Of a DNA stretch of 64,000 nt, positions 27 through 8,798 are shown piece by piece. This DNA is from Paraphysoderma sedebokerense (taxonomy: Eukaryota > Blastocladiomycota > Physodermatomycetes > Physodermatales > Physodermataceae): positions 62,001-126,000 of the forward strand of contig JAHLJZ010000029.1 in assembly GCA_025602915.1 (NCBI GenBank), given 5' to 3'. The position numbers and the translations under genes are program-made. The notes under the pieces are model-generated. The model saw only the letters and a list, made by a program, of their open reading frames with translations. It made no database searches and had not been told where the DNA came from. Numbering within the stretch: position 1 is the stretch's first letter; each line of letters opens with the position of its first letter.

Positions 27-964
27 GACTGGGAGGCGACAAAACCAGGTGGTATGAAGGGTTGGAATACTTTTGAGCAGGAATTTGTGGTGCAAGCCGC
101 AGCAGAAGCAGACGTCTCGTTCAATAGAGTAGGGTTGCTACCTTTTCCAATAGAGTCAGTCCCTACTGGATTCAATTATAGAGATGACAGAGATACCACC
201 GAATTGGAATTGGACGTTTTTCGGTTGATTTTACGGAAGTTCCGCTCAGCAACAGAAGTTTGCAACTTCTGCCAAAGTTTCAGTAGTGCTCGCAAAAAGT
301 GTAAAATCATTTTTGACACCGCCGCTCATCCGCATAAGAAGACACTTTCTGACGTCAGCCTGCAGCAAATCTGCTCTATCGGAGCACTTGAATCTCGATT
401 GCACGAACTGACAGTGAAATATCAGGGCCTACCGCATTTCTACAAGGATCGACCCAAAATTCAAGATCATTGGCTTGAGGTAGAGCAGAAAAATTTAATG
501 GATCATGAAATTATTTGGACTCAAGAGATATTACTCGAACATGTAACAAAGTATTTGTCCGGATTACTTGATGAGGCCTCAAGTGCCATGGGACTGTTTT
601 TTGTTGAGCTCGGCCTTCCTCAGAAGCTTTTGGAAATGCGCGTAAACGGACGGCAGACAATCGCAGAGATCAATAGAGCCACCGAGAAGTTGATCGCGCT
701 ACCTTCAAAGGCTGAGTTTAAAGAAAAGTTGATGAAAAAGTTTTTTCACAAATATGAAAAACGCTTGGCATTACTTGGATTCAACAGTCCAGCAGGGTGA
801 GTGTATTTCTGCATATCTTAAATATAGCTTTCTTACCTGACACAGTAGATATCACTCATCGTAGGGCGGTTTCAATTATATTGAATGGCGAAGCGGTCAA
901 TTACGAAATTGAACCGGAATATACAAAATGGATTCAAGCCATAATGAGAGCGTGGGATTTATAG
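27..964 (+). CDS. Copy 1 of an unrecognised secreted-type protein family (3' part, cut by left edge)
   Basis: Two exons are visible, 27-796 and 865-964, in frame (290 codons including stop). An acceptor (TTTAATAG) precedes base 27, so the 5' exon lies off the window; by analogy with copy 3 it should encode a signal peptide. Family marks are CNFCQSF near residue 74, a block SLQQICSIGALE, KYQGLP, a C-terminal FFHKYEKRLALLGF, then a last exon ending EPEYTKWIQAIMRAWDL. The final intron (donor GTGAGT in phase 2 after a Pro/Ala-Gly codon) sits at the same place in copies 1, 3 and 4, which supports the exon model. This is the best-preserved copy, with no break in the visible part. I recognise no known domain. 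Secretion is inferred from copy 3 only. Confidence 0.6.
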
Positions 965-2771
965 CACTATGGGTCCCAGTATTTCTCGGCTAATGTTAAA
1001 ACTACCTTTGAAATAATATACTACAATTGTTATCAATGCTACTACAAATTGTATTATACTTTGAAATATGGTGAAAATTATTTCGCTAATAACAATACAT
1101 TCTTGGATCCACTCCTATGCATATATCGTGTTATCACTCATCGAGACGACTGCTTGGGTATCGAGTCTCGGGTAAGTCAGTTTATTGGTGGCATTTCGTC
1201 CATGGAAGTAGGTGACAGCGATCGGAAATACCGAGACCGAGTGATGAACAGCGGCGTGCAATTGAACCTCAATCCCTGATAGTATATCTGACTCTTTGTT
1301 CTTCTGTCTTGCAACAATACAAAATCAATTGGGTAGATTTGCTGTTATATTTTCCACTATACTTTTGACAGGAGTCGCAATAGCTTGTGGACGGTATTCG
1401 GTGATACGTAGGTTAAATTTAAATGAATATGCCGGATGTAATAATGCAATATAACGCAATCATAACGACTGCGCTACTTTACCTCAAATCTCATTTGCCT
1501 TCTCTGCATGTTAGGCTAATCCACTAATATGTATTTAATTAATTAGTGACCCAGTAACGTAAGCGATACGTCAGGATCTTATGATATAGAGAGAAGCAAA
1601 CACTAGAGGAAACGGCAGAAAAGATAATATAACTATTTACGACTTTTATACGGTGAAGAACAACAAGTTTTCGTTATTTCTTTTTTCAACAGAAATTCAG
1701 AACAGTTAGACAATATAGGTAGTAGTTGTAATCTGATATCTTTGGCTAGTAATACTAATGTTTAACGAGTGTTTAATTCCTTAGACGATATAGTTTTACA
1801 ATTAAAAAAGTGAATGTGTTTTTCCAATTTTATGGTTTTGCCTGCTACATCAGCTGTACAGATGGAACTACAGATGGAATTGGCAGATTAGTGAGTCTAA
1901 GAATTATGGTGGCTTTCATTATTTATTTTTTGTTGCAATAAGTTCTATATCATCCATTTTAAAATGGACTATCTTTTGGTATTTTCATCAGGCTATAGAA
2001 ACTTTCAGAACATTCCATAACTGTTGCTTTCAACATTATTGCAAGTTCGAGCACTACATTCTTAATGTGAGGAAACCATTTGCATGTGAAAAAGCTCTCT
2101 TCTAGATATTTATATTAGTTAATTTTCTAATTTGGCTGGGTGTATGTGTATACTTTGGATGGATATCTCTGATTATACATCTCACGTGGTGGTCACACTG
2201 AATTACATCGAATACATTGCGGCAGTGGCTGAAGAAAGTCAAGCTCATTTAAGCTTCCCCGCGAAATTCCCGACAAGAATTTTCTATTGTAGTAGTTTAA
2301 TTAATATTCAATAACTAACAATTCCACTACTTTTACTGACAATCGGTAATTCATGAATGCAATGTGTATTAGGGCTAGTGTAATTACGCTATAACGATGC
2401 CGACAGAACTGGAATATCCATTTTCTTAGAAAGAACGAAGATACATAAGGCTGAAATATTATTAACTTAAATGCAAGAATTTCTTACTCGTATAAGCTGC
2501 ATAATTTGAACGGCGCCATGGACATAAGTAGCCGCGGTGTACCTCAAAATGGCATGAAGTAATCAACTTAAAACATCCCTAGATCTAGTACAAATAAATA
2601 GAAAACGGTACAACTTAGACTTGTCTTAGAAGTTCTTAAATTCGATTACTATATCACACTTATGATCGACAGAATAATGACAATTTACCAACAGGAAGGC
2701 AGGGAGTTCTTGGCCATGTGCCAACTGGGTAAGATACCTTGAATTCATCTGTTTCATGCCAGAAACATATA
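965..2771. other. Gene-free stretch in accessory block
   Basis: About 1.8 kb between the first family copy and the ART-like gene. Open frames here are short (60-76 codons), several begin at non-ATG codons, and none shows splice-compatible neighbours or family resemblance. The DNA is AT-rich with stops in all frames. I see no repeat, terminator or RNA gene in it. Confidence 0.5.
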
Positions 2772-5422
2772 ATGACATTCTTCTTGTTAGCTCTATATGT
2801 AATCGCATTGGGTGCGATGGTTGATAGTGTTCTAACTCCCATGGGACACGCTGTTAATGCAGCGAATCCGCCAGGCAACCCTTCAGTCATGATCAGAGCG
2901 CCGGTGCAAGGGCAGAAAAACTTATTTTTCGAACAAGATGTCGCCCATAACGAGCCCCGTGTCCACAAATCCCCCTCGTTCGATAAAAATCCTGCATCCG
3001 GAACTGATAGGGTCAAAATTAACACTAAAGCGAGATTTTTAATCAGTGGTCCAGCTGCCCAATTGTTTGACGCCACCCAACCGGGTATTACTGTCAAGCA
3101 AGTGCCAGGCTGTAGAGATGAGAAAGCTCAAATGTCTATTATGTGTGATGCTGCAAATCAATCCGAATGCGACAAGCTTCAAACCCCGGGTACCATCATT
3201 CTGGTTCAATGCGAGCGCGATTGGTTACGGAAGATACGGGTTATGAGGGTATCAACTCCTCGAAATTCGAATGATGGAACTATAGCACTCGATTCAGATT
3301 TCAAACAATTAGGTAGCGTACCTAACGCACAGCCTATTGCAATAGCCATCGATCACGCAAACCATGATTCATTCTTCACAGCACCAGGACTGGCGGTTAC
3401 TAAAGATCAAGCAAACCTGGTTCAATTAATGACTGGTACCAAAAATGGATTCTTCAGCGACATTCGTGACAAATTCAAAAATTGGGTTGATTCGATCAGG
3501 AAAGTTGACGTTGACAAATCCTCAGCACAGGGTGGATGCTATAAAGGAAAGGCAACTGTTTTAGATAAAACTGTCGTTGCGGGAACATGTTCATCTTCTG
3601 GCGCGTCAGCCGCGGCTGCCAATCTCAAATTGACTGTTGATACTGACATCTGTCTCGATCTTGTTTTTGGTAATGATTTGACATTTCCCTCAATATTTTA
3701 TCCATGTCCTGGTGCACTGATGATTGTCGAACATCTCTTTTTTTTACTTCTAGGCGTCAAGATTGTCGGTACTCTGGTCCCTTTCGACATCAAAGAAGCG
3801 TACGTTTATGTTAAATCTGGTGGACATGCGGACTTATCGGCCGACCTCACGGCAAATCTCATGCTTCAAGCGACGAAGACAGTGCGAATACCGCCGATTG
3901 GCATCCCTGGATTTGGAGGTACGAAATTAATAGCTTTGTCTTCCTAAACTTCCTACTAACTCAAATTCCTTGTTCTGTCTTTGACATAGTGGAAGGAATA
4001 ATAAATATCGGACCAGAACTAGTAATCGATCTCCTCGCTGTCGCAGATCTCCAGGCTGTCGGAAATATACAAGCAGGCGTAACTATTCCACTTCCGAAGA
4101 AGGATTTTTATATTGCGATTGCTGGTGACAATGTCGACAAAAACGACAACAAAGCTACATCGGATCAACCAACATTGAAGACACAAATAACGAATACCTT
4201 GCTTGTTACTGGAGCAATTGGTTTTCATATTCGTCCTGCTATAGAGTTTGGGATTGACGCTCTACAGGGAAGATATAAAGCTACTGTTGGCATTAGGGTT
4301 GATGGCAGCGTCACTATCAACGGACAAGGAACTGCATCTAGTCAGGAAGCAAGCGCTTGTATTAGTGGGACTGCACGATTGACCGGGCAAGCTGTTGCCA
4401 CTTTGAACCAAAAGAACATGGCCACTGCGGAAATAGGCTCTGTTTCGAAAGAGCTCTTCAATACCTGCGATCCCAACAGTCTAATTGCACCTACTCCTAG
4501 CAAAATTGTTGCCTCTACGGCTCAAGACCTGAAGAGTAGTTCGTAAGTACAAAATTGATAGTTTATTCAATTTGGAATGTTCGACTAACTTTAATATTGT
4601 TGCTAATAGCGATAAGACAGGATGCTTGAGTCTGGGCTTCACAGTTCCTGCCAACCTTCCATTTTCCCAGCAATGGGGTTTTTTACACGGGGCAGGGTAT
4701 GAGCTGTTCGACTGGTGTTGGTACAAAGATGATAAGCAAGGCCCTTGTCCAAAGCAGCCAGCAAATCCAACACAGCCAACGCAAGATAATAGGGTGGGAT
4801 CATCTGTTAGCGACCTTGTTTGGTCGCTTGTGAAGTATCAGGCACTTGGTTTCCACGGAACTAGCCGGAAACGATTTAACCAGATAAAAGACGGGGGTGT
4901 GCAGTGCGGGGAACCTGTGGTTCTTGAGAGCAAGAAAAACGAGCAGTTTGGACCAGGTTGGTGAAACTTCCTTCAAATGGATAGGTCTTTCGGTAAATTA
5001 TTTAATATCTTTTAACTATAGGGTTCTACACTACTACTAACCGAGAGGCCGCCAAAATATACGCCGATAATTGGGCAGACAGAGATCAATCAGAAGCAGT
5101 CGTATCTGTCGTTTGGATTCCCACAATTAAGTCAATGAAAGGCAAGGTTTATCCTAAGGAAGGGTTAAAATACCAGGTGCCACACGCAAGCATAGAGATT
5201 GCGGATCCTAAATTGCCATGGTTTGGAGAAAAAAGAGACGATGCCGATTATCCCGAAGAGAGTGCAGAGTATGCCACGCAACTGGTTCAAAATTATGATT
5301 TCATCGCAGGCCCACTTAGTACTTTGAATTCCGTTCAAATTAAAGTGAATCCTAAGAATTGTAATTTGATTACTCTGACTGAAGCCGGTACTTTCAGACC
5401 TAGCTTCTTCAATGCCTGGTAA
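2772..5422 (+). CDS. Large secreted protein with C-terminal ADP-ribosyltransferase-like domain
   Basis: Five exons (2772-3669, 3754-3918, 3990-4542, 4610-4956, 5022-5422) join in frame to 787 aa. I chose the ATG at 2772 because it begins directly with a hydrophobic signal peptide (MTFFLLALYVIALGAM); an ATG 11 codons upstream is possible. Residues about 30-540 are cysteine-containing and rich in beta-type alternation, with no family I can name. The C-terminal 180 residues carry FHGTS (His about 621), then GFYTTTNREAAKIYA (Tyr about 657), and later YDFIAGPL. That order resembles ART-fold proteins of the DUF3990/PARP-like type. Catalytic activity is inference: the third catalytic residue could not be assigned. 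It looks whole. A secreted ART-like protein beside a secreted-type gene family suggests a host-interaction role, unproven. Confidence 0.7.
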
Positions 5423-6308: not shown

Positions 6309-6720
6309 GAAATTTCTAATCTTCAAACTGCTGTGGAGGCAGAAATTTACTTCGAAGGAGCGCCGCATCTTCTTCCACGGCTTAACGGTGAAACTGAATA
6401 ATTTGTCAATAATATCGACCATGGTGCTACAAGTATCGAGCTGGACACACTTTGTGCAATTCTAAGCAATCTCGATTCAGCTTCCGATGTATGCAACTTC
6501 TGTCTAAGCTCCAGAACCGTTCTCGATAATTGTAAATCTATGTTTGATACAACCAGTGAAAAACCAGCTTCTACTGTAAACCTACAGCAGCTCTGCTCTA
6601 TCGGATCGCTTGAAGTCAATCTACAGGAGTTAGGTGTGAAATATTTAGGGCTTCCAAACCCGGAAGAATCCGCCTACCGAAATTCATTTGGCTCCAGATT
6701 TGCCTCATTGGGTTACAAAA
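6309..6720 (+). pseudogene. Copy 2 of the secreted-type family, decayed fragment
   Basis: The frame around 6440-6710 matches the family core: an ELDTL stretch, CNFCLSS, NCKSMFDTT, NLQQLCSIGSLE, KYLGLPNPE and AYRNSF. Upstream, EISNLQTAVEAEIYF aligns with the FEQEF..QAAAEADVSF block of copy 1, but the frame is interrupted between them. Downstream of the AYRNSF block the match stops and the C-terminal half, including the last exon, is missing. No signal-peptide exon was found in the preceding few hundred bases. I read it as a truncated, non-functional relative of copies 1 and 3. Confidence 0.55.
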
Positions 6721-7339
6721 GGATATACGGATTGGTGTTATTTTTGATCTATAACTTTAGCACAGAAGTGAGTCCAGTCCGACCAAATGAAAATTTAAAT
6801 TATTCAACATCACCATGGGCTTGCGTGGTGCAATCAGTGGTATAATGAATAAGACTGGTACTTAAATGTTTAAAAAATGTTCTGCTACTTTATCTTGCAT
6901 GCATGGTGATACATCTGCGGTTGCGTGATTTTCGCCAAACAGTTTATCAATTTGCGTGGTTTCTGGTTGCAATTTTCGGTCCAAATCTACATATTCTCTA
7001 ATCAGGCGCAATCACATTCTCCACACAAATTTTTGTAATAATGAATATAGGCTTACTGTGTCTCCGTGCGAAATCATAGAAGTCAAAAAGGAATACGAGA
7101 GGAACACCGAATATTACCAATTGTCACGTGAACTGTTCGGTTCCGACTTGGGTCCGGCTCGGCGGCTCTTTTGGGGAGCACTACATTATTCGCAGTTATT
7201 GATAATATGAATTTATATGAATTTATATCATCTCATCAAAATTTGCAGGTGGTAGTAATTATTACAGTACTTAAAACTATCTTTCTATCTTTCTAAAGCC
7301 ATCTAATATATGATATAGTGTTATTGTCTATTATTTGCG
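6721..7339. other. Stretch without a supported gene
   Basis: About 0.6 kb between a decayed copy and copy 3. An open frame around 6956-7210 contains charged sequence (EVKKEYERNTEYYQL) but has no splice partner, no recognised family and no clear start context. It may be debris of a further gene. Confidence 0.35.
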
Positions 7340-8798
7340 CTAAAAGTCCCATGCCCTCATAATTCCTTGTACCCATTTTGTGTATTCCGGCTCATTTTCG
7401 GAATTCACATTCCGGTTTCTTGTTATAGTACCGACGGCCCTGCGGTCAAAGTCTTTTATTAGTTGGGCTGAGGGCGTATATCAATAAGAAAACAACCAAC
7501 TCACCCTAAAGGAGTGTGAAATCCAACCAGTGTCAGTCGATTGTGATATTTGTGAAAAAACATCTCCATTAGCTTGACTTTAAAAGAATACGTGGAGGGC
7601 AACTCTAACAGTTTATCGACTGCTCTCTTTATCTCAGAGAGGGTTTGAAGATGGAATGAAGGTATTTCCCTCATCTTATTAGTAAGGACAGGATCGTCAT
7701 AAAAGTACTCCATGCTCGTCGCGGCCTCGTCTAATACTCCTGAAAAGAAGTTCGTCGCCTCTTCAACCAGATTCGCACGAGTCCAGACCTCGTAGTCTTT
7801 CACATTTTCTCCACTCTCCCTTTGGATATCGGCAGTTAAATAGTTCCAAAGATTCCTATACGAAGCCTGCCAAGGCTGTGGTAAGCCTAAATATTTCACC
7901 ACCAATTCATGTAATTTTGATTCCAGGGTTCCTATTGAACAAAGTTGCTGGAGACTGACGGCAGAAATTGGGTTATTGCCAGTTGTGTCGAAAAGAGTTT
8001 TACAATTTTTGTGAGCATTCTTAAAACTTTGACAGAAACTGCAAACATCTGATGCGGAATGGAGTTTCCCTAGAATAGCGCGGAACGTATCGAGTTCCAT
8101 GTCGGCGGTTTCTTTCTCAGTTTCCTCGCCTGATTCCGTGGAACTTCCTTCTCAACGAGGTAGAGATTGCACTCTATTAAATGATATGTCGGCTTCTGCT
8201 GCGGCTTGTGCTAAAAATTCTTGTTCAAAAGAATTCCAAGTATCTAATATACCATTAGAAATATCCGATTCCTACAAGTTTTTCAGGTTAGTTTTCATAA
8301 TATTAAGATCACACAAAAGTAACAACTTAACCTGTATTTGCCGCATCAATGATAGAGTCAGCAAATACTTTCCACTATTCCAAAATATGGTGGCAGAAAG
8401 GTCGCTTCATATCTTGTGTTAGGTTTTATTTGGTATGTCCGCAAAATAAAGCCTTTAAACACGTTTTTTGGTATGTCAGACCCAGGTCTGTCCAATACTT
8501 GATGGGCGGCTAAATGCACATATTTGAAATTTTCAAATTTATCTGTTGTCTGGAATGAGAATGGGACCGGCTTGTTGAGTTGCCATCGGGGAGGGGTGAT
8601 TGTTACATCTTTGAAAAGATTAGTTTCCGTTATGCAATCAACTCCCGGTAGGCATGCTGGATCTTTGTTTGGTTCGGAAGCAACAGATAGATTGTCACCG
8701 TCGATAATTTTCACAGTAACTGCTTCTAGTTGGGATCCCACCGCGACGTGTTTTAACAGTGCAAGAAAAGCTATGAATATAATGGTTGTAGCAAGCAT
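7340..8798 (-). pseudogene. Copy 3 of the secreted-type family, near full length but interrupted
   Basis: Three exons on the minus strand (8798-8376, 8271-7505, 7439-7340) would give about 429 codons. Exon 1 starts at an ATG with a strong signal peptide (MLATTIIFIAFLALLKHV) and encodes an otherwise unrecognised 140-residue N-terminal region. Exon 2 carries the family core (WNSFEQEF, CSFCQSF, SLQQLCSIGTLE, KYLGLPQP, FFHKYHNRLTLVGF). Exon 3 ends EPEYTKWVQGIMRAWDF. One in-frame stop lies early in exon 2, so either this copy is recently inactivated or a shorter product starts at the downstream ATG (8100). The exon 1 donor (GTGGAA) is weak, so that junction is less certain. It is the only copy showing the family's N terminus. 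Confidence 0.55.

What the first reader, a model, noticed from the sequence alone, without database searches (positions are those of the whole stretch)
2772..5422. 787-aa secreted protein with a C-terminal ADP-ribosyltransferase-like domain
A five-exon gene starts with a clear signal peptide and ends with FHGTS...GFYTTTNREAAKIYA...YDFIAGPL, the order seen in ART-fold families such as DUF3990. The 500-residue middle part is unrecognised. Eukaryotic introns show it is domesticated, while the closest-looking domain type is mostly bacterial, so an old transfer is possible.
Basis: partly seen in the sequence, partly recalled or inferred. Interest (0 to 1): 0.75.

Follow-up and report, generated by a model that had tools for sequence, protein, structure and literature searches.

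The report
Toxin-like enzyme in an alga-killing fungus
A fungus that parasitises green microalgae carries a gene for a probably secreted protein ending in an enzyme-like domain of the kind used by bacterial toxins, and the same domain is built into several differently assembled proteins of this fungus.

Summary
The gene is real. The window lies in the alga parasite Paraphysoderma sedebokerense. Five exons at 2772-5422 give 787 aa; NCBI holds the gene as a 789-aa hypothetical protein. A sixth, upstream exon (2677-2728) is likely. The middle holds Pfam DUF7223, just over its cutoff.

The ART occurs in three architectures in this genome, with one shared intron position. Best reading: a secreted toxin or effector whose ART came from a bacterial toxin tip. 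Activity, target and direction of transfer are not shown. Fungal uptake of such ARTs is in print (PMC3482391), so this is a new variant.

The parts
2677..2728 (+). probable missed first exon (or from 2662), start of a leader matching the paralog P0002
   Evidence: phase-1 GT-AG junction 2729-2790, protein similarity to P0002 and to the C145 locus; inferred, no transcript of this copy seen
3754..3918 (+). exon 2: start of the DUF7223 region
3990..4542 (+). exon 3: rest of the DUF7223 region (protein 324-514)
   Evidence: 27.1 bits, cutoff 27
4610..4956 (+). exon 4: cysteine-pair stretch (C575, C585) and first part of the ART domain
4854..4856 (+). His621, first strand of the ART fold
   Evidence: invariant in 13 rows; (no motif filter): at least 90% of 40 rows; 93 of 93 rows, but rows without the motif had been dropped
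4957..5021 (+). intron inside the Gly codon before Phe-Tyr, phase 1; same place in the C2 and C153 genes
   Evidence: exon lengths
5022..5422 (+). exon 5: rest of the ART domain and stop codon
5027..5029 (+). Tyr657 in GFY, second strand
5297..5299 (+). Asp747 in the YD..GP motif
   Evidence: 90 of 93 rows; invariant in 13
5336..5338 (+). Gln760 on the fifth long strand, presumed third active-site position
   Evidence: 87 of 93 rows; invariant in 13; strand order

Best explanation
A secreted, modular toxin or effector. A leader takes the protein out of the fungal cell (inferred from sequence). The N-terminal plus DUF7223 module would hold it at a surface or help it into a target cell (inferred, no direct evidence). 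The C-terminal ART domain (fold and conserved residues shown), of the His-Tyr-(Glu/Asp/Gln) type and closest in fold to the exotoxin A and cholix catalytic domains, would bind NAD+ and move ADP-ribose onto a target in another cell, most likely the algal host (inferred). The ART most likely entered the lineage once from the tip of a bacterial RHS/HINT polymorphic toxin, gained an intron, and was then copied onto different carriers (one entry and copying supported; direction inferred).
For: ART fold. Sequence match of the 13-row profile to cholix 1.3e-8, exotoxin 1.6e-5 and diphtheria toxin 2.2e-5, against 0.5 for PARP16. Database hits down to 2.9e-9; 85 of 95 listed carry DUF3990 and 2 of 95 PT-HINT. 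An RHS core (3.1e-20) followed by this ART in one bacterial frame, L020. Own-genome copies in three architectures: C29 and C145; C2 with an extra tail; short C153, C63, C72. One intron position and phase in C29, C2 and C153. A spliced-length contig for the C145 type: 812 aa on 2565 bp, while the C145 locus spans about 2770 bp. dN below dS in each of five pieces of C29 against C145; ART exon 5 dN 0.335, dS 1.84.
Against: The presumed third residue is Gln, not the Glu of exotoxin A-type enzymes, so activity or chemistry may differ. Profiles of the fungal rows alone match cholix only at 0.7, and the window's C-terminal part alone finds no ART in the PDB by sequence. No HINT, RHS or known translocation domain was found in the fungal proteins. 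No signal-peptide prediction, no expression data for this copy, no biochemistry. The N-terminal module has no confident model and no solved relative. The C145 copy has an in-frame stop in this assembly. A host target is a guess from lifestyle.
Confidence: 0.6

Rival explanations
1. It is a weapon against bacteria or competing microbes, not a host effector: a fungal version of interbacterial ART toxins.
For: Bacterial relatives occur in RHS and HINT proteins. The host's bacteria are reported to be needed for infection (start of the abstract of PMC11797010 in the listing), so the parasite lives among bacteria. One frame of the gene family that flanks the ART gene (7501-8148, -) has a sub-cutoff hit to Imm33-like (E 0.028, 14.7 bits, cutoff 27), which may be chance.
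Against: No immunity family above cutoff among the 10 window frames scanned, only 2 of them next to the gene. The fold is nearest to toxins that act on eukaryotic cells, though a shared fold shows no target.
Confidence: 0.27
2. The ART domain is inactive or only binds NAD+ or another ligand; it serves as a recognition or structural domain of a cell-wall or surface protein.
For: Gln in place of the usual Glu at the presumed third position; between C29 and C145 the ART exon changes about twice as fast in protein as most of the rest (dN 0.335 against 0.065-0.192).
Against: His, Tyr, Asp747 and Gln760 are kept across fungal and bacterial rows; the H-Y-[EDQ] clade includes Gln (passage in PMC7955679); dN stays below dS (dS near saturation).
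Confidence: 0.2
3. The domain was inherited vertically from an early eukaryotic DUF3990-type protein, with no transfer from bacteria into this lineage.
For: Versions of Tox-ART-HYD2 are reported in several eukaryotes (PMC3482391 passages); this genome has a second, separate DUF3990 gene on C116. Deep support between the two halves of the tree is 54/4 (93/89), and the root is arbitrary.
Against: The C29, C145, C2 and C153 domains group with RHS/HINT-linked rows and not with C116. Whole-length searches returned only P0001 and P0002, but they score only proteins that share short words, and fungal genomes were sampled only through that database.
Confidence: 0.12
4. Bacterial contamination or a mis-assembled contig.
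For: The nearest relatives of the ART include bacterial toxins.
Against: Four GT-AG introns; ART copies also on C145, C2, C153, C63 and C72; a 254-kb contig whose window has RanBP1, CUE, CBS and ZNF598-type domains over cutoff.
Confidence: 0.01

Closest known systems
Tox-ART-HYD2 / Pfam DUF3990 (PF13151); that the two are one family is my reading of the motifs
   Same: ART clan, His and GFY motifs, a W at the aligned place, bacterial toxin contexts with HINT and RHS, earlier reported transfer to fungi (PMC3482391 passages)
   Different: Below the Pfam cutoff (23.5 of 32.2 bits); the D of the DFG motif is Gln651 and the aligned R is Glu734; groups with a separate RHS/HINT-linked set
Exotoxin A, cholix and diphtheria toxin catalytic domains
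   Same: Best fold matches and significant matches of the 13-row profile; His and Tyr kept; exotoxin A-like toxins also carry the catalytic domain at the C-terminus (PMC11897225 passages)
   Different: Gln at the presumed Glu position; no receptor or translocation domain of those toxins found; eEF2 as target untested
RHS/PT-HINT polymorphic toxin tips (L020, P0008, P0016)
   Same: Belong to the closest sequence group of the ART domain
   Different: The fungal carrier is a leader plus DUF7223 module with introns; no RHS, HINT or immunity family above cutoff
Diphtheria-toxin-like and enterotoxin-like ARTs predicted in Beauveria bassiana (PMC12099005, passages)
   Same: Secreted fungal proteins of ART-toxin-like fold
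   Different: Different fungus and lifestyle; sequence relation to this protein not tested here
CCTX2, a fungal AB-toxin-like chimerolectin (PMC13324453, abstract and passages)
   Same: Multi-domain fungal toxin with a C-terminal effector domain and a KR site
   Different: Its effector domain is described as a new fold, not an ART; no sequence relation tested

Membership tests
ART fold superfamily | predicted fold matching solved ARTs | tested here: met
H-Y-[EDQ] ART clade | active site of His, Tyr and Glu/Asp/Gln | tested here: met
   His621, Tyr657, Gln760 by conservation and strand order in the model; clade definition from PMC7955679 passages; the third position is inferred, no residue-level overlay was made
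Pfam DUF3990 (PF13151) | score over the curated cutoff of 32.2 bits | tested here: not met
   23.5 bits for the window protein, 12.3 for P0002, 16.8 for C2; the precomputed annotation lists PF13151 for P0001
Tox-ART-HYD2 | conserved H, D, GFY, W, R (table of PMC3482391) | tested here: not met
   H, GFY and W present; D is Gln651 and the aligned R position is Glu734
Exotoxin A / diphtheria toxin group | sequence and fold similarity of the catalytic domain | tested here: met
   not by the fungal rows alone
Exotoxin A / diphtheria toxin group | H-Y-E active site | tested here: not met
   Gln760 at the presumed Glu place, invariant in 13 of 13 family rows
Exotoxin A / diphtheria toxin group | ADP-ribosylation of diphthamide on eEF2 | not testable with these tools
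   needs biochemistry
Bacterial polymorphic toxin system | RHS, HINT or similar carrier upstream of the tip | tested here: not met
   none in the fungal proteins; present in the relatives P0008, P0016 and L020
Bacterial polymorphic toxin system | adjacent immunity gene | tested here: inconclusive
   10 window frames scanned against Pfam, none an immunity family above cutoff; one flanking frame has a sub-cutoff Imm33-like hit, E 0.028
Pfam DUF7223 (PF23865) | score over the curated cutoff of 27 bits | tested here: met
   27.1 bits, residues 324-514; paralogs P0002 26.9 and C2 13.5 are under it
Secreted proteins | cleavable signal peptide | tested here: inconclusive
   hydrophobic leader in both start models; no predictor run

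The most novel reading that the evidence does not exclude
An early-diverging fungus has built its own polymorphic-toxin-like arsenal: one ART tip of bacterial origin, with a Gln active site and an exotoxin A-like fold, is shuffled by the fungus onto several secreted carriers (DUF7223 module, DUF7223 module plus a possibly lectin-like tail, or a short leader form), and is used to modify a target inside algal cells.
Probability: 0.35. Interest if true: 0.8.

Novelty: new variant of a known kind. Interest (0 to 1): 0.62.

Why it matters
Paraphysoderma sedebokerense destroys cultures of Haematococcus grown for astaxanthin, and the two literature searches that named it showed no title about its toxins or effectors (listing of 25 of 26 papers; 0 papers with secretome and effector). 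This names a small, testable set of candidates. It also shows how a bacterial-type toxin tip can be re-used in several protein designs by a eukaryote outside the insect-killing and plant-infecting fungi, and it offers an ART set with Gln at the presumed third position whose chemistry is open.

Tried and rejected
Considered and rejected: contamination (introns, copies on several contigs, eukaryotic neighbours). Structure prediction from two rows failed (mean pLDDT 28.5) and was not used. Foldseek rows to gasdermin, CsgG and actin-capping protein (E 0.06 or worse, probability 0.35 or less) are not taken as evidence. The N-terminal and DUF7223 module found no solved relative. The C2 tail found no Pfam family; a weak match to chains of mannose-binding type (4oit, E 0.0014, no stretch passing on its own; 4pdt, 0.33) is only a hint, and calling it lectin-like rests also on a motif that I recall. 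Searching the own genome with the DUF7223 model gave nothing, and nothing in the 14 controls either, so it says nothing. Whole-length searches returned only P0001 and P0002 at E up to 10, but only 7995 candidates sharing short words were scored, so absence elsewhere is not shown. The viral scan confirmed 1 of 19 pattern matches, a long phage-contig frame with several ART-like stretches by eye; not followed.

Literature: nine searches were made. DUF3990: 4 papers; DUF7223: 0; Tox-ART-HYD2: 3. In what I saw (listings for all nine, passages of seven papers and abstract plus passages of an eighth) there was no description of this protein; only openly licensed papers were searched, and the 2015 ART review (PMC6126934) was not held.

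Counts: 9 of the 95 hits were dropped because they lacked the His motif (6 are N-terminally cut, 2 have another residue at the His place, 1 has an unrelated start; seen). So the His count there is by construction and the 2 rows with another residue count against full conservation; the Gln and Asp counts are not filtered. The hits themselves were found through shared words, which favours the GPGFY stretch. For the trees, near-identical rows were removed, leaving 41 and 42. The alignment for folding used 40 of the 97 proteins P0001-P0097.

Full report
What the sequence is. The window is part of a 27.3-Mb genome in 195 contigs (G000:C29:62001-126000). The gene's best database match, with 783 of 789 alignment columns identical, is a hypothetical protein of Paraphysoderma sedebokerense, a blastocladialean fungus that parasitises Haematococcus and other microalgae (titles and abstracts in the listing). 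The five-exon model is open and has GT-AG introns.

A missed exon. P0002 (812 aa) is held on a contig of 2565 bases. Its clean pieces match the C145 locus at 96-100% identity; one piece that tblastn ran across introns matches at 64%. From first to last matched codon that locus spans about 2770 bases, so a 2565-base contig cannot hold all the introns: P0002 most likely comes from spliced RNA. P0002 begins with an extra exon. Just upstream of the window gene there is a matching open stretch ending at 2728, followed by a GT-AG intron 2729-2790 in the same phase, and the joined protein resembles the start of P0002. I take the six-exon form (798 or 803 aa) as more likely. Residue numbers here follow the 787-aa model; P0001 numbers are two higher in the ART.

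Domains. Pfam finds DUF7223 at 324-514 (27.1 bits, cutoff 27) and DUF3990 at 639-684 (23.5 bits, cutoff 32.2). The paralogs give weak hits to several ART families on the same stretch: PARP 0.039 for P0002, ART-PolyVal 0.022 for C2, PARP 0.026 and exotoxin A catalytic 0.082 for C153. None passes its cutoff, but they agree. NCBIfam has no hit for P0001 or P0002.

Active site. His621, Tyr657, Asp747 and Gln760 are invariant in the 13-row set (Asp and Gln included) and invariant or at 90% or more in the 40-row set. In the model His and Tyr lie on the first and second strands and Gln on the fifth, if three 3-residue strands in the poorly modelled loop are not counted; Asp lies at the start of the fourth. 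That Gln holds the third active-site position is an inference from this; no residue overlay with a toxin was made. Gln is an accepted state of the H-Y-[EDQ] clade (PMC7955679, passages).

Relatives. A search with three fungal ART rows listed 95 proteins at E up to 10, of which 6 are at 1e-3 or better; 85 of 95 carry DUF3990 and 2 carry PT-HINT. In genome contigs, 2 of 19 pattern matches encode relatives: a Chimaeribacter frame with an RHS core (3.1e-20) followed by this ART, and an Anaerolineales cassette near RHS-like sequence (the latter RHS by eye). One Burkholderia plasmid record has a short form (28% identity). Trees of 41 and 42 rows put the fungal domains with the RHS/HINT-linked rows (93/89; 91/82 for the set without P0007), and a single origin of the four fungal rows is not rejected (p 0.54). 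The branch between the two halves is weak (54/4), several rows are long, and the root is arbitrary, so transfer from bacteria is the likeliest but unproven direction.

A modular family. In the own genome the carrier module occurs on C29, C145, C2 and, cut by the contig start and lacking part of the module, on C120. C2 adds a Thr-rich linker and a tail, and has KR pairs before its ART by eye. A short form on C153, with copies on C63 and C72 at 87-93% identity, has a leader, a similar cysteine-pair stretch and the ART, without the module. The C2 tail recurs at 66-70% on C89 and C145 in frames where no ART was seen. The intron inside the Gly codon before Phe-Tyr is at the same place and phase in the C29, C2 and C153 genes (exon lengths), which argues for one entry into the fungus before the copies spread. 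Between C29 and C145 pieces, ART exon 5 has dN 0.335 against 0.065-0.192 in the other four exons, with dS 1.3-2.2, near saturation: constrained, but changing faster than the carrier. The C145 copy has an in-frame stop in this assembly, while an intact variant exists as P0002.

What is known. Zhang and colleagues (PMC3482391, passages) defined Tox-ART-HYD2, reported HINT and RHS contexts, and noted transfer to fungi such as Puccinia. DUF3990 is noted in Rhs proteins of Serratia and Enterobacter (PMC4524185, PMC10763514, passages). An RNA-modifying Rhs ART, RhsP2, is R-Y-E (PMC12340436, passages), a reminder that relatives of this fold need not modify proteins. Diphtheria-toxin-like ARTs are predicted in Beauveria (PMC12099005, passages). 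So the kind is known; the Gln site, the exotoxin A-like closeness, the DUF7223 carrier and the multi-architecture family in a blastocladialean alga parasite are what I found no account of in the nine searches listed under Tried and rejected.

Verdict. Observation confirmed, ART reading supported, the exact family corrected, function inferred.

Noticed in passing
window 27-800 (+), 6402-6845 (+), 7501-8151 (-): Copies of an unknown gene family flank the ART gene; the own genome gives 17 matching pieces at E 0.001 or better, 8 on C29 and 4 on C172. No Pfam family above cutoff for the two frames scanned; one has a sub-cutoff Imm33-like hit.
   Followed up: partly
L003 1318-2334 (-), G000:C116: A separate 338-aa open frame with a DUF3990 domain over the cutoff (40.3 bits), grouping away from the window's ART.
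   Followed up: partly
L031 1781-3004 (+) and L030 2194-3387 (+): Two frames on C145 and C89, 97% identical over most of their length, share the C2 tail; their other, hydrophobic part has weaker matches on C2 and C17.
   Followed up: partly
L004, G000:C145 end: Short stretches like the P0002 C-terminus lie near the contig end, suggesting a further partial copy cut by the assembly.
   Followed up: no
L019 3889-6789 (+): Anaerolineales locus with two frames that share about their first 30 residues but differ after, with small frames between, as in orphan toxin cassettes (by eye).
   Followed up: no
L017 2141-5428 (+), G000:C2: The intact C2 gene's protein did not appear in the protein database search although its sequence was in the query profile.
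   Followed up: no
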